DNA from: Fasciolopsis buskii
Taxonomy: Eukaryota > Platyhelminthes > Trematoda > Plagiorchiida > Fasciolidae
Direction of reading: 5' to 3'
NCBI GenBank assembly: GCA_008360955.1
Contig: LUCM01000101.1
Coordinates: 26,678-90,677, forward strand
Length of the DNA: 64,000 nucleotides
The position numbers and the translations under genes are program-made. The notes beneath the pieces were generated by a model, which had not been told where the DNA came from, did no database searches, and worked only from the letters and a program-made list of their open reading frames with translations. Of the stretch, positions 13,788 to 51,972 are shown one piece after another. Within the stretch, counting starts at the first letter, position 1. Each line of letters begins with the position of its first letter.

Positions 13788-14674
13788 ATGAACTTTCTAA
13801 CGCTTTCAACTCTAGTTCATGACAAGGAGACGGCACTACGTTTATTGCAAAGCCACGGAGTGATCCATCAGCAACGTTTCTGCAACAGTGGCCACCAAAT
13901 GACACTTTTAACCGTTTCTGACAGGTGGCGGTGTAATGCCCGACAATGTCGGCAAGAAACCGGTCTTCGAATGGGAACTTAGCTGGAGAGGTCTAGGATG
14001 GAGTTTAGAATAGTAATTCTATTCGTGTATTGCTGGTCCAAAAATTTGGCAAAAATCAAATTCTGCTCTGGGGCTTTATCCATTAGGCACACGACCGCTG
14101 TTGACTGGAAGAACTTTCTTCGCGAAGTTTGCGCCTGGCGCCTTTTGCAGACTCCAGCAGTTATCGGCTGCCCAGGTCTAAACGTCGAGATCGATGAAAC
14201 GCTAATATCTCGCCATAAAATCCACGCAGGGCGAGTCCTTCCCCAGCAGTGGATTTTCGGAGGGATATACTGGGAAACTAAAGAGGTATTCATGCATGTA
14301 GTGCCAGATGGAACTGCGGCCACTTTGATGGACACAATCCAGGCCCGCATCGCTCCCGGTTCAATCATCATCTCCGATATGTGTGTATCATACCAAGGAA
14401 TTGAAACGATGATTGACATGAATTATACTCATGAAACGATTAATCATACCGAAAACTTTGTGGATTCAACGACTGGAGCTCACACACAAACTTAGAATTT
14501 CGTTGGCACGTCTACAAGATGCAGAATAAACGCCAATGCGGCACACACCGATCTTTAGTGGACAGCTACTTGTGTGAGTTCGTTTGGAGGCAAAGATACC
14601 GAAAAATTGACCTTTTCATGCAAATTATTAATGACATCCCAATTTCACCCTCTTCAATAAAAAAAGTCTTTTGA
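13788..14674 (+). pseudogene. Merlin-type (ISXO2-like) DDE transposase relic
   Basis: Relic of a cut-and-paste transposase of the Merlin superfamily, the eukaryotic relatives of bacterial IS1016/ISXO2-like enzymes. The N-terminal part (13788-13979) keeps a zinc ribbon with FCNSGH and RWRCNARQCR. The catalytic core follows with the first acidic residue in VEIDET and the second in IIISDMCVSY. The third (E) lies just after GAHTQT but in a shifted frame, in EFRWHVYK, with the C-terminal part continuing to a TGA at 14672-14674. Two lesions break it: an in-frame TAG at 13980-13982, at the place where the family has a conserved Trp after GT, and a one-base-type frameshift at about 14492-14495. Otherwise the reading frame is well kept, so inactivation seems recent relative to neighbouring LINEs. 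The ATG at 13788 is the first in frame. Confidence 0.85.
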
Positions 14675-17576: not shown

Positions 17577-19098
17577 CCAACGTGCTCTGGTTGGGGCAGC
17601 TGCCTCAAAACGTCAACTACTAAAACAGAAACTAAGAACGGTTAATCGCAAACTCCGACGGTGAAGTACTAAGAGGAAGGACTACGCAGAAACAGAAGGC
17701 CTTCCTTGGAAGAACGCCACTAACTGCGGCACGAAGCCATATCACGCAATTGTCTCAAACCATCGACTTGGAGCATCCCGTGGACCCCAACCCGGCGGTC
17801 ATACTGCGTCCACACGAGCTATTCCATCAGTTAAAGCTTTCATACTTTTTCCATATCACCGATTGATCACCCAGAACCATCTTCCGGCCATTAACCTGTC
17901 TCAAACAAGAGCGTACAACTAGTCAAGCGTTCTGTAGGCATGCCCAAAACATGTCCCAACCACCTTAACCTATTCTGATTCAATGCCCGTTCTGAAGACT
18001 GGAACCTAGGTTACTCACAAAATTCTCCCAGCATATTCTACCGATATTACAAGGAAAATGGTGATCAAACGCTAAAAGTCTTCGCATATCTTCTGCTCTC
18101 AAAGGCCATGTTTCGGAACCTTAGAACAATACCGACCTCACTGCTACTGCGTATACTCGATCTGTGATCGATAACCAGATGGCAGGCGCACTCCAAAGAT
18201 GCCTCAAATTAGCAAATGCCAATTACAGCCCTTTGTATGCGCGAAAACAATTCATTCGATATGCGACCAGCACGTGAGATACAACTACCCAATAAACTAA
18301 ATCTATCCACCTCACCTAGTTCTTCCCCTGCAAGAATAAGGTTCAGCTTTGAGCCATTTTAGTTCTGCAACTGCAACGCATGTCAAGCACACAAACACTA
18401 TCGTCCAAACGATGGGAAAAAACTTGCAGCTTATTTGGGACTTCATTCAGGAGCACAACATCGTCCGTATATTCTAAGTTAGACGGTTTGCTGTCTGAGC
18501 GAATATTACTGCCATTATTCTCACATTAGGACAGCACGACTTCCGTTATCATATCGATGATAAAACTGAAAATAAAAGATGAAGGAAGGGGATTCTGGCG
18601 AACACAATTTCTCGTGGTGAATTCGGGTGAAATATCGCGATAAGCACGACCTCGGTTTCGGTTTGTTAACATACATAGATTGGGCACATTCGTTTTTTGC
18701 TAGCGCCAGATAATGCCTGCAAGCAGTTTGGATGCGATGCTTACTTCACTAATTCCTCTGAGAGTTCCACATGAGGATTTATCACCTTTCCTGTAGAGAG
18801 GCAATCGCCGATTCCCATCAGTCCTTAGGAATCTTTTCCCTTTCCCAGATCGATCCAATGAGTTTTGTTAACTCCGGCGATAACACTTCGTTACCGTCCT
18901 CTAAGGAGGACGGAGACAGTTCATCTGGTCCAGCCATCTTATACCTTTTCGGAAAACCTATCTCCCTAGTCACACTCATTTCCGATGATGTGCTCGTATT
19001 TACCTGCATTGGTCCACTTGCAGGCATAAATGTACCGTCCACTGTGGCTGTGGGTCAACTAAACTGCCCCCTAAAGCGTCTTATTCAAAGCGCCAGCC
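17577..19098 (-). pseudogene. RTE/SR2-like LINE, 5'-truncated RT copy
   Basis: Non-LTR retrotransposon on the minus strand, starting inside the region before the RT at 19098 and running to about 17577. Visible blocks are YKMAGPDELSPSSLEDG (start of RT), IGSIWEREKIPKD, the catalytic block EYTDD with VVLLNEV (18460-18474), the GEELGEVDRFSLLGSCIS thumb block, RLRWLGHVLGM and the GWGP region. Many stops and frameshifts make it dead. Positions 17735-19098 are an almost exact reverse complement of 36309-37672: no indel, and the single difference noticed is at 18908 versus 36499, synonymous in the RT frame. Beyond 17735 the two copies stay homologous in their LINE 3' ends but are only roughly 65-70% alike. 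Above 19098 no LINE sequence was recognised, so this copy appears 5'-truncated. Confidence 0.88.
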
Positions 19099-20544
19099 AG
19101 GGGTTACAGTTTCTCTCAATAATTCACACAGGCATCTATGCGAAACTCCACACAAAGGCTATCTGGAGTGTTAACTAAGGCAAAATAGGATAACTCTTCA
19201 GACTTACCGATAGAATCATTCACTGTAGCTTCTGGAGACTCGGCAGATTTCATGCCTCATCCGTTCAAAACCCACGGACAAAACAGTCGCTTTCCATAAG
19301 ATCCTTGGTAAAATGGGATCTGAATTTGGCGTATTGCCATGATTTAGCGAAGTCCCTCATCCTGTAGTTCTCGAACGAAGTCCGGCTGCGACTTTCAGAA
19401 CTCGCCGGAAGATAATGGAGTGTGCACCAACCTCCGGTGTACGAGAGGTGTATTTCCTGAACCACACTGTATTCAGTACGGGATTTTTTGTACGGCAGTC
19501 CACTAATAGGCACCCATTGAGCTGATCCTTTCACGGTGTTTGAGCCAGAATTGTCGATCCAGGATTCATTATCACCGGAGTTATCCTAAGCAATGCTTTG
19601 ACTTCAACCGTTGAACTTAGGCAGAAAAGGAGAGAAACTAAGTCACTAAAGTACCCCTTGGTCCTCATTTGGTCAACCGGGTGTAAAACGTGTCTTAGTC
19701 CGTCAACAACCGAGCTTCTCGTGCAGATTGGTACAGATAGATCATGATGCAAGCTTAATGATTTTTTCCAACTGAGTTGCGTTTACCGGCTTGCCCTCCG
19801 CACGTCAATGCTAGTTTAAAAAGATCGGTCATGCTGTACTTCCTTATTTAAAATTCATTTTCGGCACCCGGATTTAGCAAACATGATGGCTTTTGAAGAA
19901 TCATCGGCATCTGAGTTGGCAAGGAAAAAACACGAAAATTTTTCAGTCCATAGTACTCGCCCCAGTCCTTCTTGTCAAGACCGACTGTTTTATGGTTATC
20001 GTCAGAAAGTAGCAAAGCTTCGCTGTCAGCTTTGAGTGCCAGCATATAGTATTGTGTTTATATCATAACAGAGTTTTCTAGTTTCGTGAAGACTTGCATT
20101 ACACCCTAAAAACATCCGGAAGCAGATCAGAAATAAACAATAAAAGAAATTTGTCCAGATTTGGGGAAAATTTGGGGGAAATTTGTTCTCTCATGACTGT
20201 CTTCGCTAACCAGAATTGGGACAGATGTGGAACGGTGGGATTTCGACAACCATTAATACGACAGAGAACCATTCTAAATGCTCATCAAGTAGACGAGTGC
20301 AAACTTTATAAAGGTAGGTGATTAAGTGGAGGATGAGTGGGGTATGGAGGCATTTTGATGTAAATGTTTCCACACCATTTGTGCCTCACTGATAAGTGAG
20401 TCAAATGGAATAGAAAAAAACATGGCTGTAACCACACGGTCCTTGGCATGAGAGGATCCTTGCCGATCGGGCCAGAAAGATTACTGGAGAGTAAACCAGT
20501 AAGATGAGGAGAAAATGCTGAAGAACAAAAAATAAATGACAGTT
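19099..20544. other. Unassigned interval with three minus-strand open frames
   Basis: Minus-strand open frames at 20045-19848, 19752-19531 and 19534-19265 (65-89 codons) follow one another. The last reads as plausible protein (SGLPYKKSRTEY, LSYTGGWCTLHYLPA) but I cannot assign a family, and splice signals could not be established. They could be exon-like or remains of an unrecognised element. Confidence 0.25.
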
Positions 20545-20760
20545 TTCAAGAAATAATTCATCATGTGATATCAACGCTCAACTCGCCACTAGAAAACCGT
20601 GGATACATTGCACACCTGCTTTATTCTTGTTAAGAATCATCAGTAGTGCATATCCACCGCGTCCACTCTGGGATGCGAACTCGGGACAAACGAATGTGAG
20701 CGCCATGAATACTGGGCAGGTTCTCAACGGCTTGCTGAACTTAACCAAACGTTACAGGGC
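20545..20760 (-). repeat. tRNA-headed SINE with hammerhead domain
   Basis: Short interspersed element on the minus strand. From its 5' end (about 20760) it shows a tRNA-like head with a B-box-like CGAGTTCGCATCCC at about 20672-20686, then a hammerhead-type domain (20599-20657), then a tail GGCGAGTTGAGCGTTGATATCACATGATGAATTATT read on the minus strand in two halves (20545-20590). The same tail, closely related, forms the arms of the palindromic element at 61.9-62.1 kb, which establishes the family. The order tRNA promoter, hammerhead, tail matches the schistosome Sm-alpha type SINEs described in the literature; assignment to that family is inference. Confidence 0.75.
20599..20657 (-). ncRNA. 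Hammerhead ribozyme, degenerate, type I layout
   Basis: On the minus strand the core CTGATGA (20643-20637) is intact and is followed by a perfect stem II TTCTT-AAC-AAGAA (20636-20624). The GAAA box reads TAAA, so the conserved G12 (20623) is changed to U. Helix I outer pairs GTGGATA (20657-20651) with TATCCAC (20605-20599). Helix III is short and imperfect. The change of G12, the general-base nucleotide, predicts a cleavage-dead ribozyme. The sister copy at 62.0 kb keeps GAAA but has lost CTGATGA. Confidence 0.75.
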
Positions 20761-20919
20761 CACGGACAGCTGTGGCACAGCAATCGACCCTTACTGATAG
20801 GTAAATTCTGAGCGAGTAGCCTATGTAAGACAAAGGCTTTGAACGGAATGACTAATCAAATAAACTGCCCCCGTTGGAGGATCTAGGACGACAAAATGCT
20901 TAATTTCTAGCACAGTCAA

Positions 20920-21760
20920 AAATGTGGGAGTAAGGTCGGAAACTGGTGCTCATCATTAATGCCTAGATACTTGACGAACTCGACTTTTGGAACGGAGATA
21001 ACTGACAGCCGAGCGCTCATTGCCATAAGATAAACAAGAACGGGGAAAGTTGGTCCAAAGCATTTAGATGTATTAGGGTGAAAGCAAAATAGTGAGGAAA
21101 AGATCCGTGTTTAACGTAAATTATTTCCGAATGATAAAATGTTGGATCCAGTGATAATGGACTGACACAACAAGACATTGTCAACATGCTGGAGACAGCA
21201 ACTTGTAGAACAACACAATTGTTAATTAAGGGGTTGGATAAACGGGAATCATATTTATTGTTAATGGAAAAATAACCCTTTATTCACGACAGTTTAGGAG
21301 TGAGACGGGCCAAAGACCCAAACCTATGACGAAGAGAAGAAAGGGGAATCGAGTAAAACACAAAGGAATAATCCATAAATGTACAGTCAAATGACTTCAC
21401 AGAACGGCTTACGTGAGGTGATACAACTGCGTTCGCAGTGCATCTAGTGAGGTTTTGTGCCAACTGAAGTGGATCATTAGAGGATATTCAAGGAGAAACT
21501 CGAACGGCCCGTTTGGCCGGTTTGAGCGTGGAGGAAACCATGTTGATAGGGTTGAAATATTTTGATAAAATATTCGAAGTCGGGCGTTTCGGAGTAGATA
21601 CAGCTGTTAAAGATTTCCAGGAGGTTGGGATAACGCCAGTGATGGCGGTTTTGTTCACAAAGGTGGTCATAATTTCCGTGAGCTTGTACCCTCCCAATTT
21701 ACAAATAGCAGCGAAAGGGCCATTCGAATTGGTGGTTATGGCTGCTTCTAAAGATCAGAT
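20920..21760 (-). pseudogene. CR1/jockey-like LINE reverse transcriptase fossil
   Basis: Minus-strand remains of a non-LTR reverse transcriptase of the CR1/jockey kind, a different lineage from the RTE-like copies. In order from 21760: LGGYKLTEIMTTFVNK and GVIPTSWKS (about 21637-21611), the fingers block of these RTs; YFNPINMVSS, matching the YRPI..LS block; LTRCTANAVVS; FMDYSFVFYSIP (about 21387-21344), the first catalytic-Asp block; LSWIKGYFS-like residues interrupted by a stop; and, after a frameshift, VEFVKYLGI (20976-20950), the block after the YxDD motif. The YxDD block itself was not found. Several stops and frame changes show it is dead. The element's 5' and 3' ends were not located. 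Confidence 0.65.
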
Positions 21761-23160
21761 AAACTTACAACTTCCTTCAAAGAAGAGTTCAACTCATGTT
21801 ACGTCAAGCAACGTGGAAGATGGTAGAGTGTATGAGAACAGATGAACCAACGCGACATTCATACTGCTACATTCATATTACGGATCGATAAGCGTATGTA
21901 TTGTCAGCACTGAAGCCCGTTTTCATTTCAGAGAACTTTACTGGTTGGTGAACTAGGAGTTTGATCAAAAAACGAAATAACAATTCACGAAAGTTTGGTC
22001 GTGAAGTTTCAGTCTTCTCAAAGATGAGAATAAGAACGGTTTCTATGGGATAGCAATGATCAAAAATTACATTCAATGTCTTTGCCCAACAAAGTTAAGG
22101 AGTATTCAGGGAAGACCTAAGGGAAACAATGAATAGGAATCGTCTAAGCATAAAATTATTGGCTGGAGACATGGTTCTATCCTCAGCCTTCATTTGTTTT
22201 GTTCTAACAACTGACAGATGTGCAGTACGTAAATGAAATTCGGACCTAACGAAGGTGTGAGTGATCAGCTGATGAATCCAGAGAGGGCAAATATAAGTGA
22301 AAAATTTCAGCATGGTTGGTGATTTCTTCGCTTAAAACGGAGATGAGATTACCAACAAAGCTCAGAATTCGATTTACGTGATACCAATCAAGAACACGTT
22401 CTCCATATCCCGCTTACGGGATCTAGTTATCTTTGAGTGTTACACCCCGGAAATATTCATGATCTGTCTCATTCGTCCCCTGGATAATCGAGACTTTTTT
22501 CTCCCGGTTCGTCATTGTGACCGATTCCGCAAGCAAGGCCTGGTTGACCGTGCCCTTGAGATTAGTATTTTGTGAAATTCGCTGAACGGCAGCAGCTGCC
22601 GGGCCAGATGTGATTGTTTATGCCAGCTTTATTGACCTACAGTACACATTCGGGTCAAACGACTGATACACATTTGTTTTTCAACTGTTTTCTCACCGTC
22701 ATCACTTACGTACGGTTCGATCGATCCATATGATATCAACCATTGTCTTGTTTGTCACGATCTGTTTTCAAACCTGGTCCACTCAGGCACACAAATGATT
22801 TCATTTTATTTACGAGGGGTTTACAGATAATCACGTGTCAACAAAATGGAGATTGCGTTGGTTCGGCTTGTGATATTTTGGTGAGACTCGATCTGGGGAT
22901 AGTAACGGTTTAGTAGATAACATTTGGACTTTAATATGTGGTGCCCATCATTTCCTAAACAACAACGCATTAACAGACATTGGTCTAAATATTTCGTCTT
23001 TGACAGATTTATTTACTAATTCCTACATGCGGTAACAACAGTAGGCCGATGAGAGTGACCGGGAGATGCCACGTGATAATGATTACTGTTAGTGAGAAAA
23101 CAGTTAATCTGCGGGAAAGTTTGAATGCACAACTCAAGACTAGGAATGGATTCGGGCTTT
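21761..23160. other. Unassigned interval
   Basis: About 1.4 kb with only open frames of 72 codons or fewer and no recognised motif. It may include unrecognised 5' sequence of the CR1-like LINE at its low-coordinate end. Confidence 0.35.
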
Positions 23161-23200
23161 CCTGACATCCCCAGGTTCGAATCCTGGTCATGGCAACGGT
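23161..23200 (+). other. tRNA T-arm-like sequence (B box)
   Basis: CCAGGTTCGAATCCTGG at 23171-23187 forms a perfect 5-bp T-arm with a TTCGAAT loop, identical to the Pol III B-box consensus. No matching acceptor stem, D-arm or anticodon arm was found upstream at tRNA spacing, so this is read as the remains of a tRNA-derived repeat and not as a tRNA gene. Confidence 0.5.
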
Positions 23201-23340
23201 TTGGCCAGCGGTGGCCAAGTGGATAAGGTTGTGACGCTTGGACGTGAAGGTCGCGGGTTCGAATCCTCCAACTCCCAGTCAACTTTCCCACTTGGCAGCC
23301 CTCTGTTGACCGCGGCCCCCTTCCAGTATTGAAGTGTGTG
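23201..23340 (+). repeat. tRNA-derived SINE, copy 1
   Basis: Starts with AGCGGTGGCCAAGTGGATAAG, containing an A box (TGGCCAAGTGG), and has a B box GGGTTCGAATCC at 23253-23265. The tail GGCAGCCCTCTG followed by the GC-rich GACCGCGGCCCCCTTCC is shared with the copies at 45.6 and 52.6 kb. It sits directly after another B-box remnant, suggesting two nested or tandem tRNA-derived repeats. Confidence 0.8.
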
Positions 23341-24977
23341 ATTGCAGCAAGACTTGAACCCGAAAATCCTTTTGATCAGTTCACCTGCTCAAAGCCGATC
23401 TTGGGAGCGGTTGAAGAAAATGGGGTTAAAATCCACTCCTGGTTATCCTCAGGTCACTCGTTTTGACAACATTTCATAATTGTGTGCGATATTTGGCCTC
23501 TTATTACCGCTAACAACTTCTATTCGGCTGGTGGGAAATTTGAGATTTTGGCTTCCTAAGGTCTCACTAAAGCAAAGCATTTATTTTGTTCCTGTCGCCA
23601 GACCAAAAGAGTTCCACATCTGGTGTTCTCGCTTTGGCAGAAGTTTCAAAAATACCGTCAGTCCACCAATCTCGGGTGCGGGATCGTCGCTGATCAACCA
23701 GTGATGGATTGACAACGATAAAATGGAGATTAATCTTCCAACGGATATTCAGCTAATTAGCTATTGTGTGGGAATCACGTGGTACCATTTATTGCTCCTT
23801 AATACCGGCTTGGTCTTTTCCGGAATTCCTCATGAACTGTGTGAATCTCCAACAAGCTAACGTTTTGAAATAGTCACGAGACTTTACTATTAGAGTCCTG
23901 TAACCATAGACAGATATGGATCTGTTCCTCAAACTCCCCACTTGGACGGCGAACAGCATATCATCCCAGAACAACGGACTAATCATTTTACCCACATCCA
24001 ACAAAGGCATGTTCACTGGAAGAAAGTAAAACCGGACAGAAATTCCCAAGAATTTACTTTCTACCAGATTACCGCAAACTAAATGATCAATTACCAATAG
24101 AGGATTCCTGAATGAGAGAAGCAGAAGTGACGGGATTTTTGTGCAACACGACAATTCTATGTTTGCTAAAACAACGCAGCGCAAGTAACTTGTAACAGGG
24201 TATTTGGGATTGTAAACAAATTCCACCCAAACCTCCACCCTTTTGGAACAATCAACTCTGAAAACAAGTTAATTTTATCTAGTTTATTACTGCGCAGTTA
24301 GAGTCAGAGCACCAGTTTCCACAAGATATCCGTTACATTGTTCGCTATTCTTGTTTGTTTCTCATCATAAAGGAATATCGAGGCAATGTTTTGTAAAATG
24401 AGTGGCATCTGCAACACATTTAATAGGGCTACTGAATACCTCCGAGTGCCGTAGCTTATTGGATTGGTAATGAAAAGCCACTGACCTCGGGGTTCCCGGG
24501 TAAAGCAGAAAGTTTGGTAGTATTGTCTCGTCAACAATCATTGAAATAGCATTTGGTTGACCGTGGATACTGCGTATCTGCACAGTACTGATCCCGTGTG
24601 AGGCCTCCAAAAACATCCGGCATTGAGATCGGTCTCTGGCTCAGGGATTAATCCGAATGAAGTTGTTTCGGCCAGAACTTCTTCATTCCACTTTCACTTC
24701 TCAATTTCTTCCTTAAAGAAAACGCATGATACATCATTTTCAAGAACGAGATCGTGACCAACATAAGGCTGGTAAGTGGAATACTTGGCCGGCCGTATGA
24801 ACAATTCATCCCGCAACCTTCCCATTGAACCATCTTGATGTTGACTGCTTCACCCCCGCCAGCCACGCAGACAGATTAAATCCCGAAATCGATTAACTTG
24901 AAGTGTTACCATTCTACTCGATCTGTTCAAATTGCACTCCTTACATTGTTAGCCGCGGATTAAAAACTTACGTACAA
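23341..24977. other. Unassigned interval with a 149-codon open frame
   Basis: The minus-strand frame 24238-23789 is open for 149 codons and hydrophobic in places, but no domain was recognised and no neighbouring exon could be supported. Further short minus-strand frames follow at 24304-24866. Nothing else was identified. Confidence 0.25.
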
Positions 24978-25300
24978 GCCACGTGATGTAGTTCGGCACA
25001 TCTTCAGGTTAGCCTGATTAGATAAGCAGTTATTGATAATCGTAATGACAAAGGGTCGTGAAATCCAAGCATTCCTCGAAGGTGACTGGGTGAAATGGAT
25101 TCCGCCAGTCGGAGTAATACCAGTCTTGTATGTAAATCCATGAGCTGTAGATATAACTCGAACTTATTTCCGTTCGGCTGTGGTTTTCTTGTTGACCTCA
25201 TTCGCGTACCTTGAGTCGAAGCTGATTCATTACTTACTGGTTACTCGTGTCCGCTCGTTTCCGTAGCTGACCAAATTCCATATGCTAATCACAGATCCAA
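24978..25300 (+). repeat. TATA/CCAAT LTR-like repeat, copy 2
   Basis: Contains the family blocks CACGTGATG near its start, ATGACAAAGGGTCGTGAAAT, TCCTCGAAGGTGACTGG, a TATA-like TTGTATGTAAATCC, TTTCCGTTCGGCTGTGGTTT and, towards the end, CTGACCAAATTCCATATGCTAAT, which matches the 3' part of the copy at 53.1 kb. Older and more diverged than that copy. Confidence 0.6.
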
Positions 25301-28300
25301 ATAATGCATAAGCGCGATTTCGACAATGAAATCACATATCATTCGGAAGCTCCTTATGAAGTAATCTAACCTCCGACGGTCGTTTGATCTTCGTTTATCA
25401 ACATGGTCGGAATCAACCGTACATGTCCATGTTTCTTCGTATTTTCTCAGCCTTTAGATGTAGTTCGTTATCACCATATCATCGTTCCTCATCCGTGTTG
25501 CATGGGTTTTCATCGGCGTTGGATAATTCTCTGCTTTTGGCAGCAGATTTTTTCATAGTTTTATTTACCGTTGTACTGCCTTTCATCAAGGTACATTAGG
25601 GTAAAAATCAAGTTGACCTAAACAACTTTTGCAAGCCTATGCTGCATGACATATAACGCTCGTCATGACCCAGCTTTATTTGGGAAGGAGTAGGCAGAAA
25701 ATGGTTTCTGAGTGTTCTACAGCCGACGAACAGCTTATGATCAAACAGTTATAAGCCACTTTCAAAGGTTCACAAGCCGACACACAGGTGGCCGAAAATG
25801 CAATCTAAAGTATTGTGCTGTATTCGGTCTCGGGAGACGTTACAGAGCTTCTGGTTACGTAAACTGGACCAGTAACTCTCAGCATAGCATGCCAATAAAC
25901 CAGCTCATCTGAGTGAGTGGATTTTGTCCGTTTTCGGGGAACTGCCATCTATCGCGATTACGCGTCGGCATTCGAACCATATGTAGTGCCTAGATCAAAT
26001 CAGCGGTATTCGATTTCAGTTTTGGTTGAACATCGTCCTGAGCGCGTCACAATAAGAGCATCGTCGCCGTCCTGAAGTAATGCATTTAGAGGGGGAAGAA
26101 ATCTGGCAGGCTGGTGGAATGCGGAAAATTCACCTTTTTCTTTCCCGAGTCGACAAAAGTTCTGGAGGATAGACTCACAAGTATGAGCACGTCGATGCGT
26201 AAGTGTCGTATTCTGGGATTACATGGGAATTAAAAACCCATAGAATGCAAATGTTCAATTCAGACCACCACAATAAATATCTCACAAAGCGAGAGCCGTT
26301 ACATTAACGCTAGGGGGATAATGTCTTGTTTACGGTCACTTGGGTAGTCAAATTTGAATCCGCTTCAGAAACAAGTGGAGCTATTTGAAAAGAAATGCAG
26401 TTTGCGAAATGTTATTTCAACAGGTTTGGAAGATTTCTCCAACGGCTGCCAGATAATGAGTCATGAAAAGTCGGGTTTCCATTGCTTCCAGAGGCGAAAT
26501 AACAAGGCATTAGGCTGTACATCATTTCCGTTTTTTCCATTATTTTCGTGTTCCTCTTTCTTTTTTCTTTGGATTCTCACAATCATGATGAGGACGGATA
26601 TTATCTCAGGCTACACAGGAATCAAGCACCTGAGAAAATGCATTTTTGCACTATGTACAATTGAAATTAATGTCGTTTTCGAACCCTTGATGCATAATAA
26701 TAACAACATTATGGGCATACATCGAAAGGTTCCTTTTTGAATAGCCCATGGTGTCAAATTCTAACGAATTTCATATAAGCCCAGCCAATATGTAGGTTTA
26801 TGGATAACCCCTTATAGAATTAGACAGCAAATTTTGAGATCACTGAAGTAAGTCCGCGGGAGTCGCCGCGATGAGAACGGAACCCGAGCAATCGAAGCTT
26901 AAATACGGGACGAAAACAATCCGTTTTACCATTTTAGGTAGGTAATATAAAGTATTTCCAAGTACTCTTTTATTTTAATATTCAGTTTAACCTCGTTTGT
27001 ATCACGATCTTATTTGGTGTATTGCAGTGATCCCTAGTTCAAGGCACTTGCACATGAAATTCGAATTAATCTTTCAAGTTCTTCAGTTCTATCGGCCCAG
27101 TGCCCGCTATTGGATGTTAGAACCACAGTAGAAGCTTTTTGGAGTGTGGGTAAGTTCAAACCAACCCAAATGTGAAATGAATGAAATCTGGGCCTTTTTA
27201 CAATTAAAATGGCATCTTAGCTTTTTGACCCAGACAAGTATTCCATTTTGAGCACGAAATCGTCACGGCAATAAATCTTGCCCAGGTACGAGTGTATATG
27301 TACACTTTCGTTACGGAATTCACCGTAACACTCAACTGAGACAATGACCGAATAAAGACAATAGAACCCTTGATTTGGGAAATTTCTGTGATGAATTCCA
27401 GGAAGTAACCAAAAAACGAGTGCAGTCACAAATTCAGTGTTAATCGAAGTACGTTAGTACCTGCATTAAGCGTTGTTTTTTGTGGGATTAAAAGTTCAGG
27501 TCTTTTTAAGGTTCTAACTCCGGTAGCTTTTATAAAATCCTAGACCACTTTTTACCAATTTGAAAGTATGACTTTCCAGTATAACCTGGAAAAAGACTAC
27601 TACACCGGTAAGTAGGTTTCGGTGGACTCTGTTCACGTTTGTCCTATTTGAAGTCGACAGTTTAGAAACGTGACCCGCGTTTGTCTCAGCAGACGTAGCG
27701 TACCTTTGTAATGTTTCAGAAACTCATCTACATAGTCGATATGCTCAGAGGCAGAAAACGAAAAGGCCACATCATCAGGATCATTAAGTTTAAATCGGTC
27801 GTCCGAAAGGGCTTTTAGTCACGGCACCAACTTCTTTACATTTCAAGATGATCGGTTAGATGTAGGAAAAGAAATGCAAAATAGTTTGATTTTATCCAAA
27901 TGGAATTAGGATAATCGACCGGGAGACACTATAGCTTCAGATTTACAATTATGGGGAGCAAATAATATTACTTTTCGGGTTTATATCCTACAAACTTAAC
28001 TTCATCTATTTCGATTCCTCTTGAAACGTTCAATTTTGTCAATCCACAGAAGTTAAGCCAGATCAAGTCACGAATATTCTGTGAGCAATCACGAGAATGA
28101 TCGCAATCCACTCTTTCCTTGTTTTTTTCTTTCCATTCACACAGATCTAAAAGCGGAGGTGGAGAAGCGAACCCGGATACAGTGTGACACGGGTCGATTT
28201 ACAGTAGGTAAACGGCGAATCCGGAATCGGACGTCATGACGAGGGCGATCGTAAGCGAGAAACCACTACTCTCAGGCAGAAGGGATAATCACCTAGTTTG

Positions 28301-30011
28301 TGGACAAGCATCATGTCAACCTATGCAAAACTTGTTGGTATCACTAGGCTCACCGCTTGTAAGGATTTTTTCAACTGCCCTCAGCATCACTGCTGCGTGT
28401 CGAAGATGACCGAACGAATTTATCGATCCGTTGTCTGGTTGGTTCGATTTGGGAGATAGTCACATTTTTATCCTCGCTCACACATACCAGAGCACAAACA
28501 ACCAATCCTAGTGACATTACTACCTAACACTTTCGACACTACCGAGATCGGTTATTGGGGCCAGTCAGCTCTCACGTCTGTGTTTCCCATTATTTCGTGA
28601 AGCGATAGGGTAATCACCTTATCCAAAGGTTAGGCTATTCCAATCACCGATTGCTTTGCATCACGTCAAATCTTAACCATATAAACAACCGAAAACGTAC
28701 CACTCCTTTCTCGTCCGCACGAAATATCATACGGCCAGAAGACTAAATTTTATTGTTCGTTATCCATGGTGGATACTATTTGTTCCCATCTTTTTACAAC
28801 CTGCGAAACCGTCTGTCACCTTGATATCATGTGAAAAACAAATTCTGCACCAACAGTTATGCGGTTGTCCCAGTGAAATGCATATGCACATATATCCATG
28901 AATTCTCAGATCTATCGTCAGGTAACTAAAAAGAAAGTCAAGATATCATATCATAAAAGCATTATTATGATTCCATCCTCCTACCCACCTCACACGTAAA
29001 CGAAATTGTTTATCCAGCCTCCAAGGTTTGCATTGAAGTTTGCCACCCAGCGTGTCACGTGGCCTAATCAGTCGCTCAAATAAAAGTATCACAACATGCC
29101 GCACAAATTTCGTTCGCCGCTGCAATCTCGCCGTTCACCACAGTAGACGATTTGGTTGAGCACGTGAACGTGTCAAATGCAGTTTCAGAGACAGGTCAAA
29201 TAAGAACAAATCGATCAGCGTTCAGCACACAGGAATGCCCTGTTCTAAGCCGCACTTTTCAAACCAGCCCACAAGTCACACTACCAAATAAATTTGCTTT
29301 CCGAATGATGAACAATGTATATCCGCTTATAAGGCAATTAGCAACAAAACAATACCTTTATAAGTTTGCGACAATTTCCGCTGGTAATTCGGTTCACCAG
29401 ATTTGTTAGAGGCTTTCGGACAATAACACAATACGGTTTTCGTTGTCAAAGGTAGTTTAGTCGAAACTTCTGATTAACTCTTAGGGCAGACAGAAGATAG
29501 GGAAATAATGAGGACTCCAGGAACTATCGCGAAAATTTTTTATTCTTGCTTGAAACAAAGATTGGTTCATCCAAGTACTGATGCAAATTTTGCATTAAGG
29601 CCCAGAGAAGACATGCTTTCAGTCGGCATCATGAGCGTATACAACCGAACAGAACAGAACTATCATCTTTTCATTTTTACGGCTAAATTCCAGAGGTCAG
29701 TTTGCCAAAACGGCTACAGACAAAACAATTGGTTGTTATTTATAACCGGTGTTGTTGCCTTGGTTGGTACCATATGTAACCCTGGATTAGTCAGCCACGA
29801 ATTCGGTCATCATCATCATCATCGTCATCGTTCAGCGTTAAACAGCAAGGCAAGTCTCACTGATCGCCGCCTTTTCTCCAGAGTTACACGTTTCTATAAA
29901 AAGAGTGAATATCCAAGGGGAACAGGGAGTGGACCTGCACAGGCAGGAAAATACAAGAATGCTGACGTAATCAACATGCGGAACACAGTCTAACTGTAAA
30001 AATTCACTCTT
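25301..30011. other. Unassigned interval
   Basis: About 4.7 kb. Open frames of 128 codons (26354-26740, plus) and 161 codons (29508-29993, plus) show no known domain; the latter contains a CAT-repeat coding five His in a row (29808-29830), a simple-sequence effect. Splice structure could not be established, and no transposon motif was recognised. Confidence 0.3.
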
Positions 30012-30580
30012 TCAATCATTCTGATTCGATAGAAAAAGACAACACGATCGCCACTGTTCACGGTTCACTGCCATATCCTTAAGTGTCTTCAGCCGGCAAG
30101 TCGACAAGTCTTTCGGACCCCAACCACGAAGGCGTGAGACACCTACTTTACCTAACTTCGCTGTACATTTTCTCATTCCACGTTGCCACGTCATTTGTTG
30201 GCCTCCACATGGCTTCTTCCATTCCTTAGGAGGAACAACTTAGGGTACGGAATGGTAGACGAGTGTTCGTCATACGCAACACGTGACCCAACCAGCGTAG
30301 TCTACTAAGTTTCATACGCTGAAACAAGCTATTCTCAAAAGTGGCACCCAATACCAGATTCCTAACCTTAATATTACTCACCCGGTCACTCCATCCAATC
30401 CTAGCCATACTACGTAAACATCGGTGATCGGAAATCTCCAACCGACGAACATCGCCCACACGCATACTCCACGTCTCGCAACCGTACAACAGAACTGAAT
30501 ACACTGCGGTACAGTACACAAGACCTTCCAACTTCAGTGAAATATCCGGCCGATGCTACAAGTGCTTCAGTCACAACGAG
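30012..30580 (-). pseudogene. RTE/SR2-like LINE, 3' fragment
   Basis: 5'-truncated non-LTR retrotransposon on the minus strand. From 30580: LKHLWHRPDISLKLEGLVY, VLLYGCETWSMRVGDVRRL, SDHRCLRSMARIGW, RVSNIKVRNLVLG and LSRLRWLGHVLRM, the typical post-RT thumb and C-terminal blocks. The frame stops at 30226; the remainder continues in another frame as MTWQRGMRKC, RLRGWGPKDLST and LKDMAVNREQWRSCC, ending in a TGA near 30012. There is thus one frameshift in an otherwise well preserved stretch. It is younger-looking than the copy at 0.4 kb and belongs to a different subfamily from the 36-kb copy by residue content. Confidence 0.85.
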
Positions 30581-32400
30581 ACTGCACCTTGACGTGGTGT
30601 GACGGCTTGCGTGCCTCCATGATCCAACGAGCTATACACGATTGCTCTTTTCAAGCCGAAGATCCAATATGGCTGAAAGGTCAATGGGTAGAGACCTGAC
30701 GAAGTAGTCTCCTGGTCTTCCCAGTCGGGGCTGATCTGAGTAGGCAGCTCAGTCTGAAGAACCAGTGGAAGAATAATTGATCCAAGTAGATGGGTTTCCA
30801 CTCAGCCATGGCACGCTGCCTTGCGGTCAGGTTCTTATTAGAACTAAAAGATTTGGTTGAGAACCCTAATCGTTCTTCTACTTAGCGGCTGGAGTCCCTA
30901 GCAATACCCACCCATCAACCCCCACGAATTCGGTGACCAAGGCCGACGTTCACTGAATCGTCAAAATCACTTCATCGCTTATGTACAATAATATGGTGCC
31001 CTGTGAACTCCCTCTTACCTTAAATTGGTCACAAGTCAGGAATGAGTAGAAATAGTCGGTTCTCTTGGCATTGAAAGTTGGAGAATGGTAATATGATTAA
31101 CATAAGTTACCACATAGAAAGATCACGCTGTTCAAATACACGCGAACGTTGGGTCATACGAAGTGATCATTCGTAGGTTGTTTGATACTTCCTCATTCCC
31201 ATTAAGTTTATCAGACCAGTTTTACAGAAATGTGGTTGAACCATAGTAAACGATAATCGAATGAGTTTATGGCCAGCAAAAGGGGGCTATTTGCCGCCTG
31301 CTTGATCAACAGCAACGTTAATTGTTGCTATCCTTTCAGGAATCGTGTCGTCAAAGCTTGGTATATTTTTCGAGGATTTCGCTAAGTAGATTTCGGAAGT
31401 CATTCCCAGCAGAGGGAATAAGAATGAGGGTAGAGAAACGCGGTGAATCCAATAGAAGTTCATGCGTCAGCAACCATGGATCACTGAGGCCAGCTAAGAA
31501 TACACATCAGCCGATCCGCCTCTATACAATGGGTAAGTCAAAAGGACAAAGAACATTCCGAGTAATGGTCCACAAGCAATCCACTGATACGTCCGTAAAA
31601 TTAATTTTAAACGTTAATTTTGCTTCTGTGTAAGTTCTAGCGAACTATTTCCGACTATCTGAATCTAAGCGACGCTGGATTTTGGGGGAAGTGAGGTACA
31701 CAACAGTCCCTTGCCACATGCAGGAAAGTTCACTCAACTCGTTTTACATCCTCAGTGTTCACGGCTTTCAACACCATTGAATGCGGAATGCTTTTTACTG
31801 AAAGAGCGCAGACTGCAAGGCTGATTACATTTGTGACATTCTAATGTTGAATGGAAGAACACCGCATCTGGGTCGGCTTACGTAATTGTTCATTATCTTC
31901 CAGATGTAATTTCAGCTCCGGGCTGCACATTCAGCTGTTCATGAGTAAATGTCTTCCAGTACTACTGCTCATTCCGATGCTCTAAGATCAAGTTTAAGGA
32001 AGATGCAGCAGATTTCAAGGTGTAAGCCAATAAGGAAACAATCAATTTTTTGACTGGCACAGGAGAAACGAAGATGACTAATTACTACCTACAGTTTAGA
32101 ACTGGCTGGTCGAATTGTATCCGGACTTTCATTACCCACTTCCTCACAAAAAATTGCTACTGTCTTTTGTTGCCTTTCTGTCATGGTCGCGTGAATTGCC
32201 TAATATTCATTACTCTGTATTCTATCCGGATAAGTTGAGTCGAAAAGTATTTGTTTCTACCTCGACATTGATATAGCTGGGATTGACGATGCGAAAAATC
32301 TGGAGACTCAGAATATACTGTTTCCGTGTCCTTGCTCATCATTGAATCACGCCGTCTTTTAACCAACTTGTGTAGGTGATTTTGATCTGCCGCCCACTGA
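30581..32400. other. Unassigned interval
   Basis: The sequence from about 30,598 looks GC-richer and unlike its surroundings up to about 30,960, and might be untranslated 5' sequence of a LINE on the plus strand, but no motif proves it. An open frame of 103 codons (31322-31633) is unassigned. Nothing else was recognised. Confidence 0.3.
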
Positions 32401-33120
32401 ATGCACCATAACGTCGAAGCAGGCCTTGTTGTCGTGCCACCCACGTCAACCATCTGCATCCCCATCCTGTCGTATCACGTGGCCCACCGATTGCCTGGGC
32501 TGAAGGGTTGGCGCACCTATTGGTGCGATTTTTCAAACAAATATCCAGCGACGCTTGACGCCAGAATAGGGCCCTCAAAAAGTTTGATCGTTGTGGTAAC
32601 TTCGACTTCCCCCCTCTATATGATGATTATCAGTATCATAGTGGAAAGGAAATCGAGTGCGAGAAAGCCAGCGGTCCGTTCGTTAACCCTTCATATTTTC
32701 GCGGATGGCAGTAGCGGCCGCTCGAATTTCTCTTGGCCTGTTTTTTGCACCCGTCGGTTGGTTGTTACCACTAACAATTGGTCCCATCTTTTTGTTGAGG
32801 CACTTTATAAACCCTATAGAGTTCACAGGTTTTCCATTTGCACACCTTCTTTTGTCCCTAAGGTACCCACATGCTTTCAACTAGGCTTAAATCCGCAGTC
32901 TCAGCTGACGGTCGAATATGTCTTATCCGACTTCCCCGTCATGCCCTCCTACAATTCCCGTTCGATGCAATATTATAACAGTTTTTTATTTCATTATTTT
33001 TATGCGTTATTTATGACTAAGATTGCGGCCTTTAAGAGACTGTTAAAAAAGAAATGGCTGACGGTGGCAGGGTTGGAACTCGCAACATTCAAAATAAACC
33101 TCAAGATGCTAGAGGCTTGA
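32401..33120 (+). other. Longest open frame (239 codons), unassigned
   Basis: An uninterrupted plus-strand frame from ATG at 32401 to TGA at 33118-33120. No domain or family motif was recognised. The last ~25 codons (VAGLELATF) overlap a minus-strand tRNA-SINE relic, so at least the 3' end is antisense repeat DNA. The opposite strand has frames of 79, 94 and 65 codons. The frame could be an old element read in antisense, an exon, or chance in a locally GC-richer stretch. The length is unusual for this window, whose other unassigned frames are below 170 codons. Confidence 0.2.
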
Positions 33121-33128
33121 TCAACGTG
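33048..33128 (-). repeat. tRNA-derived SINE relic
   Basis: Antisense remnant of the SINE family at 52.6 kb. Plus-strand order TGACGGTGGCAGGGTTGGAACTC, then CGCAACATTC, then CTTGATCAACG parallels the other copy's GGTGGGAGGACTCGAACCCGCGA, CCTCACG and CTTGACCACCG. The B box is degraded (GAGTTCCAACCC on the minus strand). Confidence 0.5.
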
Positions 33129-35101
33129 AATTTTGAGTGTAAGCGCATACATGTCACTGCGAACTGTCGGTCTTTATTCTTACAGCAAGTGGTCCTCACT
33201 GCAAACCACTTAAGCTGACATCATATTTCTTCAGACATACATTCACAGACCCTTCTTTACTAATTATACTCGACAGCGTGGATTTTGCAATCGAATCAGC
33301 TCGGGTCATTTTTCGTTCGCACACTTTCCCACCTGGGTGGTTTTAAGGAAACCACAACCGGTCGAACATTTCACCTCGATTTTATTGAACGAACCGACGT
33401 AGATAGTAGTTCACCTGCCAGTCGAACTGGCTGACTTTGCAAAAATATCGATCGAAGAAACTGATGGATCGACCTGAAAGCCGATTGGTTGCATGTGGCT
33501 CAATGAGAAATACCATTGGCGCTACAAATGTCATGAAAAAGGTTTATCAAAGCGCGCACGATCTCGAACAGCGAAATTGCAGAAAAATCTTCCAAGGTCA
33601 AATGTTAATCAGCATACCAGCTCTATTTGAGATTCTAGTGCACGACTGACAGGTTGACTCAATGTAATGTAACACTAAGAGCAACGGGTCCAAATCCTGT
33701 GACGTGAAGCGGGAGAAATACGTTAACGGACAGACAGAAAGATCCACTAGAATTAAACCGTTCATTAGGGGGACTAGAAGCAACACTTTCCACGGTCTTT
33801 CGGATTTCGGCCACATTTTACTGGTCCCAAGGATTTTTTTACCAGTCAGTTGTAGGAATTGTTATAGAATAGAATAACTAAGCAGAAATGTCTTATTCCG
33901 AGTGAGCTGTGGTCATTGCAGCGGTTGGACCGCCAGGTGCTGGATATGATGACTTTCGCTACAGGCTTATATCTTGCATCCCCGCCGACTGAGGCACAGT
34001 CGACGACTCCGTTCTCAAGGGGTTCTTGTCTCCCCCCTGGCCTCTATCCCCGACAACTGTTTGTGCGACCAGAGACTTGTGTTTCAGTAAATTGCAATCA
34101 ACTGGTAGCCGTTTTTCTTCATACTATACACTGTCAAATTTTGGAATAAAGTTTTATCATCCCGGTTGATGATACAATTAGATAAAGCATTACGCCACGC
34201 ACAGCTCGATTCCTGTTCGAACCACCGCGGCGGTTTGTTCCCAACTGATTGTGGATGTCACAACAGAGGACAGTTTATAGAGCTACGATGGTTGGATGCA
34301 TATCCAGGTACTTTGGTATGGCAAACACTTGCTAAAGCTATAAAAGATATTGTGTGGAAGGAAAATGCAACCCTTTTGCATTGAGTAAAACGGAGGAAAA
34401 ACAACGTGAACGACAGTAATTATTTGTAAAAGCTCATAATGCGAAATTACCTGGCAACCGACGTAAATCGTTTCTGTACTGATTTATCAATTCTCAGCCG
34501 ATTATTTATAATTGAACAGGGAGGGCTTTGTGGAAGCAGTGGCAAACTTAAAAAATAAACCGGTTTGTCAGGTAAATTGAGTTCACAATAAAAGGCTGTT
34601 ATGATCATAGCTTTCGGTTGTAGAAAAGAAATGTGATCGGTAGGACAAGATAACAGCAAGCAGACTAATCAGAGCCTAAAGGATCCACTCCTGGTTCTCG
34701 AAATTCTAGCTAAAGAATCCTAGTGATTAAGTGAGTTGTTTTTGGCCGTCAGTGAAATCGGCATGAGAATCGAGTTAAACGGATTTAAACCATCATTCCA
34801 TCCAATGTACAATGCTTGAGAGATCACTGTTTAGCAGCATGTACGTCTTATCCCCGTCTATGTCAATGAGCTCATATTCAGAGTTCATCAGAAGAGGTAG
34901 GACACTTCGCTTGATCAAAATAATAATTTCATCTCCTATGTAGGCAAGCTTTCTAATTTCCGTTCTTTCGATGTAGGGACCGCTTAAACTGCCGCTAAAA
35001 ACTGCGGCTCGATTGATTGATCTGATGACAGCGTTAAGAAAAGGGGAAGAAATAGTTCGTAAACATAACTAAAATCTAAGTGTTCATTTCAGTTGGGTCC
35101 C
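33129..35101. other. Unassigned interval
   Basis: About 2 kb with open frames of 60-77 codons only. No family was recognised. A TTCGAACC motif near 34,215 is B-box-like but isolated. The upper end may include untranslated 5' sequence of the following LINE. Confidence 0.35.
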
Positions 35102-37825
35102 TTCAATTTCCGCACACTGACTCAAATAGGGCAACAAGCCGCCCTAGATAGAAGGCTTGTAACTCTCAAAGTAGATTTATACTGTCTCTAAAACGTGCAA
35201 ACAGGATTCCACTTCCGAGCCTAAATGTAACCTTAATCTATCCCTTCACTCTCCGCGTGTCAGGGTGATCCGGTATCGAGCGGTCATGTTCAGGCTGGCT
35301 TTAGGATTGCTCTGACCATACGAGCGAATACCCGCTTATGTGCATTTCGGTTGGACAGCTCTGTACGTGTCAACGGCAGTCGATTGAGGCTTCGCTGTTT
35401 GTTCGACGTTGACAGCAGATCACGTGAGGTGAAGAATTCGTTCCATTGGGAGTTACCTCGGTTACTCTACAGTGTGCATTCAACAGACGTTGGGATCGTT
35501 GCTAGTGAATTTAACGCCCAACTTGGGAACTTAGCGAAGACGGAAAAGCACATCGGAGGTCGATTTCCCGTCGAAGTCGATCGCACTGACAACAGAAATC
35601 ATCTCATCCAGGTTTGTTGTAGCTGCAGTTTTGTCATAAAAACAACATCAGCTCGGCCGGCACCCCTCTTAGGCTTCACAGTACTGGGCTCAGATCGATC
35701 ACATGGCCAACGGTCACCGGTTGCGTTGATCAATCGAAAATTATCGGTCATTCTGGTCCACGCTTCTGGACTCCGCTCACTCTTTGGTCCGAGCTCGCTT
35801 TTTCGCACTCAGTCTGCAGTCACACCAACACAAAAGCTACTTGTCCGACACAGCTGACTCTGTATGACAATTGCCGAATTCAATTCCAGTCGAAATTTTC
35901 AATGCGGTTGTTGTGTGAACCAAATGCCCAAGATCTCAACGAACACTGGAAGCGGAAAAATGTAGCCCTGCACTCAGCGACAACTACCACGCAGGACTCT
36001 TTGTAACGTAAACCTAAAAACGATGGATATCCTCGATTTGATTTACACTGTTAGATGCTCGCAGATCCGTCCCCCAGATGCAAAATACAATGAGATGCGT
36101 ACATCCCTGAGACGTCAAATGACCAGGAGTCTGATAAATTACCGGGATCAGTGGTGGACAGGAAAGTGTAGGGAAATGCAAAAGGATGCAGCAATCAGAA
36201 ATGGTTGGAGCCTTCACCGACTGGTTAGGAATATTGGTCCATGGAAGTTGGGCGTAAGCAAGGTGTTTAAGGAATCCAGGAACACACTAATTCACTCCCA
36301 ACACCGTCGGCTGGCGCTTTGAATAAGACGCTTTAGGGGGCAGTTTAGTTGACCCACAGCCACAGTGGACGGTACATTTATGCCTGCAAGTGGACCAATG
36401 CAGGTAAATACAAGCACATCATCGGAAATGAGTGTGACTAGGGAGATAGGTTTTCCGAAAAGGTATAAGATGGCTGGACCAGATGAACTGTCTCCGTCGT
36501 CCTTAGAGGACGGTAACGAAGTGTTATCGCCGGAGTTAACAAAACTCATTGGATCGATCTGGGAAAGGGAAAAGATTCCTAAGGACTGATGGGAATCGGC
36601 GATTGCCTCTCTACAGGAAAGGTGATAAATCCTCATGTGGAACTCTCAGAGGAATTAGTGAAGTAAGCATCGCATCCAAACTGCTTGCAGGCATTATCTG
36701 GCGCTAGCAAAAAACGAACGTGCCCAATCTATGTATGTTAACAAACCGAAACCGAGGTCGTGCTTATCGCGATATTTCACCCGAATTCACCACGAGAAAT
36801 TGTGTTCGCCAGAATCCCCTTCCTTCATCTTTTATTTTCAGTTTTATCATCGATATGATAACGGAAGTCGTGCTGTCCTAATGTGAGAATAATGGCAGTA
36901 ATATTCGCTCAGACAGCAAACCGTCTAACTTAGAATATACGGACGATGTTGTGCTCCTGAATGAAGTCCCAAATAAGCTGCAAGTTTTTTCCCATCGTTT
37001 GGACGATAGTGTTTGTGTGCTTGACATGCGTTGCAGTTGCAGAACTAAAATGGCTCAAAGCTGAACCTTATTCTTGCAGGGGAAGAACTAGGTGAGGTGG
37101 ATAGATTTAGTTTATTGGGTAGTTGTATCTCACGTGCTGGTCGCATATCGAATGAATTGTTTTCGCGCATACAAAGGGCTGTAATTGGCATTTGCTAATT
37201 TGAGGCATCTTTGGAGTGCGCCTGCCATCTGGTTATCGATCACAGATCGAGTATACGCAGTAGCAGTGAGGTCGGTATTGTTCTAAGGTTCCGAAACATG
37301 GCCTTTGAGAGCAGAAGATATGCGAAGACTTTTAGCGTTTGATCACCATTTTCCTTGTAATATCGGTAGAATATGCTGGGAGAATTTTGTGAGTAACCTA
37401 GGTTCCAGTCTTCAGAACGGGCATTGAATCAGAATAGGTTAAGGTGGTTGGGACATGTTTTGGGCATGCCTACAGAACGCTTGACTAGTTGTACGCTCTT
37501 GTTTGAGACAGGTTAATGGCCGGAAGATGGTTCTGGGTGATCAATCGGTGATATGGAAAAAGTATGAAAGCTTTAACTGATGGAATAGCTTGTGTGGACG
37601 CAGTATGACCGCCGGGTTGGGGTCCACGGGATGCTCCAAGTCGATGGTTTGAGACAATTGCGTGATATGGCTCCTTGCTGCAGTTACTGACGATCTTGCA
37701 TTCGAAACCTTTCTTGTATGTATCTCTTCAATTCCGTATTCTGCAGTTGATCATTTTTTGTTTCGCGTTCTTTTTCTTTTTCAGCAGTTAAGGATTTGTT
37801 GCTTCACACGCGACGTTGGTGGAGG
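35102..37825 (+). pseudogene. RTE/SR2-like LINE, near full-length coding relic
   Basis: The most complete retroelement in the window. An apurinic-type endonuclease begins at 35102 with FNFRTLTQIGQQAAL and continues with EFNAQLG, HIGGRFPVEVDRTDN and, after a frameshift, WAQIDHMANGHR and NYRSFWST..DSAHSLVRAR (to about 35,830). The linker (36023-36322) has LRRQMTRSLINYRDQWWTGK and LHRLVRNIG. The reverse transcriptase starts with MAGPDELSPSSL, keeps IGSIWEREKIPKD and the catalytic EYTDD block (36933-36947; Y-x-D-D intact), GEELGEVDRF, then RLRWLGHVLGM and the GWGP/LRDMA C-terminal blocks. Stops and frameshifts occur throughout, so no protein is made. Positions 36309-37672 are almost identical, inverted, to 17735-19098. 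Confidence 0.9.

Positions 37826-40266: not shown

Positions 40267-40267
<1 letters not shown>
37826..40267. other. Unassigned interval
   Basis: Nothing coding was recognised. A run of A around 38,100-38,108 could mark a LINE tail. The stretch 39,600-40,000 is GC-richer and has overlapping minus-strand frames (65-68 codons) of the sort produced by old repeats. B-box-like GAGTTCGAATCT occurs at about 39,308. Confidence 0.35.

Positions 40268-40315
<48 letters not shown>
40268..40315. repeat. (TA)n microsatellite
   Basis: An uninterrupted TA dinucleotide run of about 48 bp. Its perfection suggests it is polymorphic in length. Confidence 0.97.

Positions 40316-51970: not shown

Positions 51971-51972
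<2 letters not shown>

What the first reader, a model, noticed from the sequence alone, without database searches (positions are those of the whole stretch)
17735..37672. Two dead LINE copies, inverted and 17 kb apart, almost identical over exactly 1,364 bp
17735-19098 (minus) and 36309-37672 (plus) match as reverse complements with a constant coordinate sum of 55407, meaning no indel in 1,364 bp; the only difference noticed is 18908 versus 36499. Both share the same stops and frameshifts, so neither could have copied itself in this state. Past 17735/37672 both continue as homologous LINE 3' ends but at only about 65-70% identity by eye. An abrupt fall from near 100% to about 70% within homologous sequence is a classic mark of gene conversion (or of a recent inverted duplication, or of one contig piece placed twice).
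Basis: partly seen in the sequence, partly recalled or inferred. Interest (0 to 1): 0.8.

Follow-up and report, generated by a model that had tools for sequence, protein, structure and literature searches.

The report
Dead LINE piece present twice, inverted
A 1,364-base piece of a long-dead jumping gene appears twice, almost identically, 17 kb apart in a flatworm-like genome; similar local copies found elsewhere in the same assembly suggest it was pasted in while the genome was being put together, although a real repair event that overwrote one copy with the other is not ruled out.

Summary
Both are wrecks of one LINE family sharing a ~220-base RT deletion. Among the 40 genome candidates scored, no other match over 100 bases exceeds 74%. 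Copy B (36.3-37.7 kb) is LINE across both edges. Copy A is LINE in register past its 3' edge (tails 67% alike) but not beyond its 5' edge. So B's body was copied into a different old LINE, A, not by retrotransposition nor by blind duplication.

Such blocks are frequent in the sequence sampled: 7 pairs of at least 350 bp and 97.8% identity in 171 kb of two contigs, 5 inverted; six have centres differing by at most 0.31%. In C54 no pair of 150 bp or more lies between 79.5 and 97.8%. Two of three short N runs seen are flanked by such duplicates. Real duplications should leave intermediate ages, so I rate copying during assembly (gap closing) somewhat likelier than real homology-primed repair. Only reads or PCR can decide.

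The parts
17735..19098 (-). Copy A of the 1,364-bp tract (likely receiving site)
   Evidence: 1360/1364 identical to copy B, no indel
36309..37672 (+). Copy B of the tract (likely donor)
   Evidence: LINE continuous across both edges
17568..17734 (-). A's own LINE 3' tail, in register with the family
   Evidence: hits in 5 of 14 other genomic copies; 42/59 and 44/69 matches to an 11-copy consensus
37673..37790 (+). B's own LINE 3' tail, in register
   Evidence: hits in 8 of 14 other copies; 44/57 and 50/70 matches to the same consensus
35336..36308 (+). B's LINE continuing 5' of the tract (end of endonuclease region and linker)
   Evidence: hits in 10 of 14 other copies; protein match E 6e-21 in the 600 bases before the edge
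19099..20098 (-). A's 5' flank: not LINE by these tests
   Evidence: 0 of 14 other copies hit at E 1e-3; best protein match E 0.041 in the first 600 bases
36698..36724 (+). Place of the ~220-bp deletion in the RT, shared by A (18683-18709)
   Evidence: 10 of 11 other copies with matches on both sides carry 176-220 extra bases here (reckoned by hand); P0002 aa 182-267 missing
36412..36412 (+). Difference 1: A in B, G in A copy (18995)
   Evidence: CpG context
36499..36499 (+). Difference 2: G in B, C in A copy (18908)
36719..36719 (+). Difference 3: C in B, T in A copy (18688)
   Evidence: CpG context
37591..37591 (+). Difference 4: T in B, C in A copy (17816)
   Evidence: CpG context

Best explanation
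The A locus holds a different, old, decayed copy of the same LINE family, of which the 3' tail is genuine. Its body (17735-19098) shows copy B's sequence instead of its own. The copying was directional, B into A. It joined in register on the 3' side through LINE homology and without visible homology on the 5' side. Most likely it happened in the assembly: a gap at A was closed with sequence from B, 17 kb away and in inverted orientation, as seems to have happened at other places of this assembly. Shown: the anatomy, the direction of continuity, the lack of a third near-identical place among the scored candidates, and the frequency of like blocks in the sampled stretches. Inferred: that gap closing rather than the worm did the copying, and that the four substitutions are allelic differences of locus B. 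One route that fits 'local and inverted', untested and recalled rather than read, is mate-pair libraries contaminated with short paired-end fragments, which would offer inverted reads from about one insert length away. Centre-to-centre distances of the seven inverted pairs are about 0.8, 9.6, 9.8, 16.2, 18.6, 22.6 and 38.1 kb (reckoned by hand from the coordinates).
For: Self-comparison of C54:1-120000 (111 kb without N) and 60 kb of C1980 gave 7 pairs of at least 350 bp and 97.8% identity; in C54 the next pair of 150 bp or more is 79.5%. One comparison between the two contigs (60 kb x 120 kb) gave nothing above 83.4%. Centres of six of the seven pairs (all but the one around the window's N run) differ by 0-0.31%; under a uniform spread over 0-15%, six that young has p about 2e-10. 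Over ten blocks examined, two of which overlap (C5799), the centres differ at 12 of 13,315 positions. In 5 of 5 pairs with informative LINE context one copy's LINE runs through an edge where the other's stops or jumps (C5799 not scored, P2, P3 and P6 not informative). Two of three short N runs in the held sequence are flanked by overlapping near-identical sequence: the window pair 60269-60896/61352-61987, and a 776-bp overlap at a single N in L010. The two longest (AT)n arrays in C54, of six with 8 or more units, lie on block edges. False duplications amounting to 4-16% of sequence, some joined by wrong gap filling, are documented for older assemblies of three species (PMC9516828, passages).
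Against: There is no N at either edge of A or B. The four differences (0.29%) exceed the 0.09% mean of the ten blocks, which are heterogeneous (chi-square 19.8, 9 df, p 0.02). A join at 21 of 28 bases is loose for an assembler. The third short N run (L019) has no duplicated flanks. Sequence of intermediate divergence does exist locally: pairs under 150 bp at 80-88% in the window, a 127-bp pair at 96% and a tandem array at 80-85% in C1980, and an 85% pair over 3.1 kb in C6173. None of the (AT)n arrays of C1980 is near a block edge. Assembly method and reads are unknown, and so is the origin of the N runs (the tool says withheld stretches also read N). Long stretches without N (60 kb of C1980) could mean long reads, which would make the blocks real.
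Confidence: 0.5

Rival explanations
1. Real ectopic copying in the worm: a break in LINE A was repaired by synthesis on the inverted LINE B 17 kb away. One end was primed in register at the 3' LINE homology; the other was end-joined (synthesis-dependent annealing with end joining) or stopped where A's 5'-truncated LINE ends (ordinary non-crossover gene conversion).
For: In-register junction at the 3' edge with both tails true LINE ends. Shared deletion absent from 10 of 11 informative copies, and shared stops. No third near-identical place among the scored candidates. Four substitutions, three of them transitions at CpG found in either copy, look like mutation after the event. P4 (window 51278-51974 and its partner beyond the window) is a second case with LINE on both sides of an edge. 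8 of 17 scorable block edges show more similarity than any of 307 mismatched edge pairs.
Against: Surviving flank identity (67%) and family background (64-74%) are below what conversion usually needs. It does not explain why the sampled stretches hold several equally young local blocks and, at 150 bp or more in C54, none of middle age, nor receiving sites whose LINE ends at the block.
Confidence: 0.33
2. Long-term concerted evolution: old local repeat pairs, mostly inverted, are kept identical in their centres by repeated conversion while their ends drift.
For: Near-perfect centres with short diverged ends in several pairs. Inverted bias: 7 of the 9 pairs other than the one around the window's N run. 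Known for palindromes with arms over 99.9% alike (PMC3723533, passages).
Against: Needs a homologue at both sites, but several receiving sites lack LINE beyond the block. The 12.4/13.2 kb pair has no third match in the genome (2 of 2 candidates scored). No pair of 150 bp or more between 79.5 and 97.8% in C54.
Confidence: 0.08
3. A simple recent inverted duplication of B's segment into a random place.
For: Size and local inverted orientation match young duplicates of C. elegans (median span 1.4 kb, often adjacent and inverted; PMC2728529, passages). Another block here, C4768, has no significant similarity outside either edge.
Against: The copy landed in register beside a LINE tail of the same family and orientation, which chance would hardly give (the odds were not computed).
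Confidence: 0.07
4. Retrotransposition of a transcript of B, with or without template switching onto another LINE RNA.
For: A's abrupt 5' end resembles 5' truncation.
Against: Target-primed copies start at the 3' end (general knowledge), yet the 3' ends differ by a third. A's tail is decayed at least as much as B's. Part of the RT is deleted.
Confidence: 0.02

Closest known systems
False duplications in draft assemblies (PMC9516828, passages seen)
   Same: Near-identical local copies, differences at allele level, some beside gaps or wrong gap filling, a few percent of the sequence
   Different: Those described are mainly uncollapsed haplotypes; here most blocks are inverted and A/B have no gap at their edges
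Ectopic (non-allelic) gene conversion between dispersed repeats (PMC3758752, PMC3924818, passages seen)
   Same: Sharp drop from near-identity to family-level divergence inside homologous sequence, in register
   Different: Homology is missing on one side and only about 67% on the other. [quoted passage not shown]
Small inverted local duplications of young C. elegans genes (PMC2728529, passages seen)
   Same: About 1.4 kb, local, inverted
   Different: In-register landing beside a homologous LINE tail; almost no older cohort in the stretches sampled
Human Y palindromes (PMC3723533, passages seen)
   Same: Inverted arms with very low divergence
   Different: Large arms in a haploid region; here blocks of about 0.3-4 kb

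Membership tests
Non-LTR retrotransposon (LINE); the clade name RTE is recalled, not tested | Reverse transcriptase homology along the element | tested here: met
   P0001, P0002 and others, E down to 1e-52 on the tract; no Pfam hit on the decayed frames
Non-LTR retrotransposon (LINE) | Dispersed family of copies in the genome | tested here: met
   6615 candidates, 40 scored, 64-74% identity over 100 bases or more; 14 copies read
Functional LINE | Open frame with intact RT | tested here: not met
   stops and frameshifts, ~220-bp RT deletion
Gene conversion tract | Near-identity bounded by homologous but diverged sequence in register | tested here: inconclusive
   met on the 3' side; not met on the 5' side, where A is not LINE by these tests
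Gene conversion tract | Pre-existing identity high enough for recombination (mainly >80%) | tested here: inconclusive
   tails 67% and family 64-74% speak against; the original A body cannot be seen
Retrotransposition copy | Identity includes the 3' end of the element | tested here: not met
   18 of 46 bases differ just past the tract
Inverted segmental duplication | Unrelated flanks on both sides | tested here: not met
   3' flanks homologous in register
False assembly duplication | Half read depth or discordant read pairs at the copies | not testable with these tools
   no reads are held
False assembly duplication | Gap between or at the copies | tested here: not met
   no N at or between A and B; N between or at the copies in two other pairs of the same assembly

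The most novel reading that the evidence does not exclude
The blocks are real: this flatworm-like genome keeps copying 0.3-4 kb patches to places within about 50 kb, mostly inverted, often using short imperfect homology at the edges, and removes or rehomogenises them so fast that hardly any of intermediate age remain, at a density of about one pair per 25 kb in the stretches sampled. The LINE pair would be one such patch that landed in register on a sister element.
Probability: 0.2. Interest if true: 0.75.

Novelty: not a real feature. Interest (0 to 1): 0.3.

Why it matters
If the copying is an assembly effect and the sampled density (7 pairs in 171 kb) holds genome-wide, which is an extrapolation, thousands of such blocks would distort repeat ages, duplicate counts and any claim of gene conversion made from this assembly; the pair gives a simple test case. 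If it is real, a genome with such frequent local patch copying would be a good system for studying template switching and repair between poorly matched repeats.

Tried and rejected
Rejected: plain retrotransposition (3' ends differ); a high-copy family carrying the tract (only two near-identical places among the scored candidates); an exact contig string placed twice (four substitutions); polishing errors (they cannot turn about 70% identity into 99.7%; inference). Led nowhere: Pfam on the decayed frames, solved structures, Rfam and tRNA scans of the window, the antisense ORF of the tract in the protein collection (7 candidates, none with E up to 10), LINE relatives in viral contigs (none of 6 stretches) and bacterial contigs (1 of 8 stretches, 41% identity, not used). 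A check whether the assembly is one of the Paragonimus assemblies of PMC7370270 found none with its size and contig number (passages). Dropped from the block counts: a 127-bp pair and a tandem array in C1980, window pairs under 150 bp and the 85% C6173 pair. Three pairs (C5799, C4768, C6173) were found through the LINE hit list, not by self-comparison. One pair (P2) is cut off by an N run of unknown origin outside the window, so its true length is not known; two long N runs in fetched stretches were not counted among the short ones. The edge test could score 17 of 20 edges; C6173's two edges scored as chance there although its alignment shows short similar ends. The 14 LINE copies were picked from the list, mostly for reaching the end of the tract, not at random.

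Full report
WHAT IS THERE. Window 17735-19098 (minus, copy A) and 36309-37672 (plus, copy B) are reverse complements with coordinate sum 55407: 1360 of 1364 bases agree, no indel. The copies are separated by 17.2 kb.

WHAT IT IS MADE OF. Read through its broken frames, the tract is the linker, reverse transcriptase and C-terminal part of a LINE (relatives P0001, P0002; 10 proteins with E up to 1e-5 among 7993 scored candidates). It has many stops and frameshifts and lacks residues 182-267 of P0002, a deletion of about 220 bases within the RT. Of 14 other genomic copies read, 11 match on both sides of that place and 10 of these carry 176-220 bases more there; the eleventh (L017) has a deletion of its own (reckoned). 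Among the copies read, the deletion is special to A and B.

HOW OFTEN IT OCCURS. The assembly (703,196,239 bases, 6974 contigs; the window is part of contig C54) shows two near-identical places, both in the window. All other listed matches longer than 100 bases are 64-74% identical (61 matches, 40 of 6615 candidates scored). So the pair appears private, and about 70% is the normal distance between copies of this family.

THE EDGES. Copy B is LINE on both sides. Its 5' flank hits 10 of 14 other copies and its 3' tail 8 of 14; the LINE match spans about 35336-37790. Copy A is LINE from its 5' edge (DNA match from one base outside, protein match from 18 bases outside) to about 17568. Its 3' tail hits 5 of 14 copies, its 5' flank 0 of 14. 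The tails of A and B are 67% identical (100 of 149 aligned, score 26 against a shuffle maximum of 20.5; with flanks of 1000 bases the maximum is 25.0). Against a consensus of 11 other copies, which favours those 11, A matches 42/59 and B 44/57 in the first 60 columns (the 11: 43-52 of 53-60), and 44/69 and 50/70 in the next 80 (the 11: 28-61 of 60-70). Both tails are therefore genuine ends of this family. Divergence jumps from 4 of 1364 to 18 of 46 at the edge (p 3e-25). Hence B's body was copied, in register, into another old LINE. Retrotransposition starts at the 3' end and is excluded by the different 3' ends; a blind duplication would hardly land in register.

THE WIDER PATTERN. Self-comparison of C54:1-120000 (111 kb without N) gave six pairs of at least 350 bp and 97.8% identity: four inverted, this one included, the direct pair P3, and a direct pair around the window's N run. 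The next pair of 150 bp or more is 79.5%. In C1980:200001-260000 there is one more, inverted, 1166 bp, 98.2%. Between the two contigs the best row is 83.3%. Three more pairs turned up through the LINE list: C5799 (inverted, 3.6 and 1.3 kb blocks that overlap), C4768 (direct, 2.6 kb) and C6173 (inverted, 0.9 kb). Over the ten blocks the centres differ at 12 of 13,315 positions; for the six from self-comparison other than the one around the N run the values are 0 to 0.31%. If such pairs arose steadily and aged, six so young has p about 2e-10 under a uniform spread over 0-15%; a mean lifetime below about 0.5% divergence would be needed. Against a clean gap in ages stand shorter window pairs at 80-88%, a 127-bp pair at 96% and a tandem array at 80-85% in C1980, and an 85% pair of 3.1 kb in C6173.

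EDGES OF THE OTHER BLOCKS. Several centres are flanked by some 15-75 bases of looser similarity and then none. Eight of 17 scorable edges have more matches in 25 bases than any of 307 mismatched pairs. In all five pairs with informative LINE context, one copy's LINE runs across an edge at which the other's stops or jumps (ours, P4, C6173, C4768, C1980); C5799 was not scored and P2, P3 and P6 were not informative. That looks like directional copy and paste rather than exchange between two equal homologues. The 354-bp pair at 12.4/13.2 kb has no third match in the genome. Of the three short N runs in the held sequence, two are flanked by overlapping near-identical sequence (window 60269-60896/61352-61987; a 776-bp overlap at a single N in L010) and one is not. 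The two longest of six (AT)n arrays in C54 lie on block edges; none of those in C1980 does.

HOW IT MOST LIKELY AROSE. The age spectrum, the locality and the duplicated N flanks fit wrong local gap closing, a known source of false duplications (PMC9516828, passages). I put this at about one half. Real homology-primed repair or conversion is the main rival at about one third. It explains the in-register edge well, but homology of about 67% is poor for recombination (PMC3924818 and PMC3758752, passages), and it does not explain the shortage of middle-aged pairs. Three of the four differences are transitions at CpG; if CpG is ancestral, two were lost in B and one in A. That suits either mutation after a real event or allelic differences. 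Any deletion at A and the original A sequence cannot be seen here.

WHAT IS KNOWN. Ectopic conversion, small inverted duplications and false assembly duplications are all described kinds. My three searches on conversion between LINEs or in trematodes listed no paper whose title or abstract start describes this case (listings of 15 of 77, 2 of 2 and 12 of 27 papers).

Noticed in passing
window 12405-12758 and 13225-13578: Inverted 354-bp pair with 466-bp spacer; 335 central bases identical, differences only at the ends; the two copies are the only matches found in the 703 Mb genome.
   Followed up: partly
window 60269-60896 and 61352-61987: Direct near-identical pair, no mismatch and one indel, on the two sides of a 455-N run; looks like unmerged contig ends, if the run is an assembly gap.
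   Followed up: partly
window 39595-40279 and 51278-51974: Each has a near-identical partner on the same contig outside the window (direct, 49 kb; inverted, 38 kb), with an (AT)n array on one edge of the window copy.
   Followed up: partly
window 36412, 36499, 36719, 37591: All four A/B differences fall at a CpG in one of the copies, three as transitions (p 0.003 for three of four), although CpG is not depleted in the window (observed/expected 0.93).
   Followed up: no
window 13983-14492 (+): Open frame of 170 codons with an ISXO2-like transposase domain (PF12762, E 1.6e-8); a Merlin-type DNA transposon by recall.
   Followed up: no
P0002 (protein collection): A LINE reverse transcriptase related to this family (45% identity) is filed under Streptococcus dysgalactiae on a 2.2 kb contig; probably eukaryotic contamination of that record.
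   Followed up: no
L010:2622-7546 (C5799): A 776-bp near-identical overlap sits on both sides of a single N, and both sides are inverted copies of one continuous stretch about 4 kb away.
   Followed up: partly
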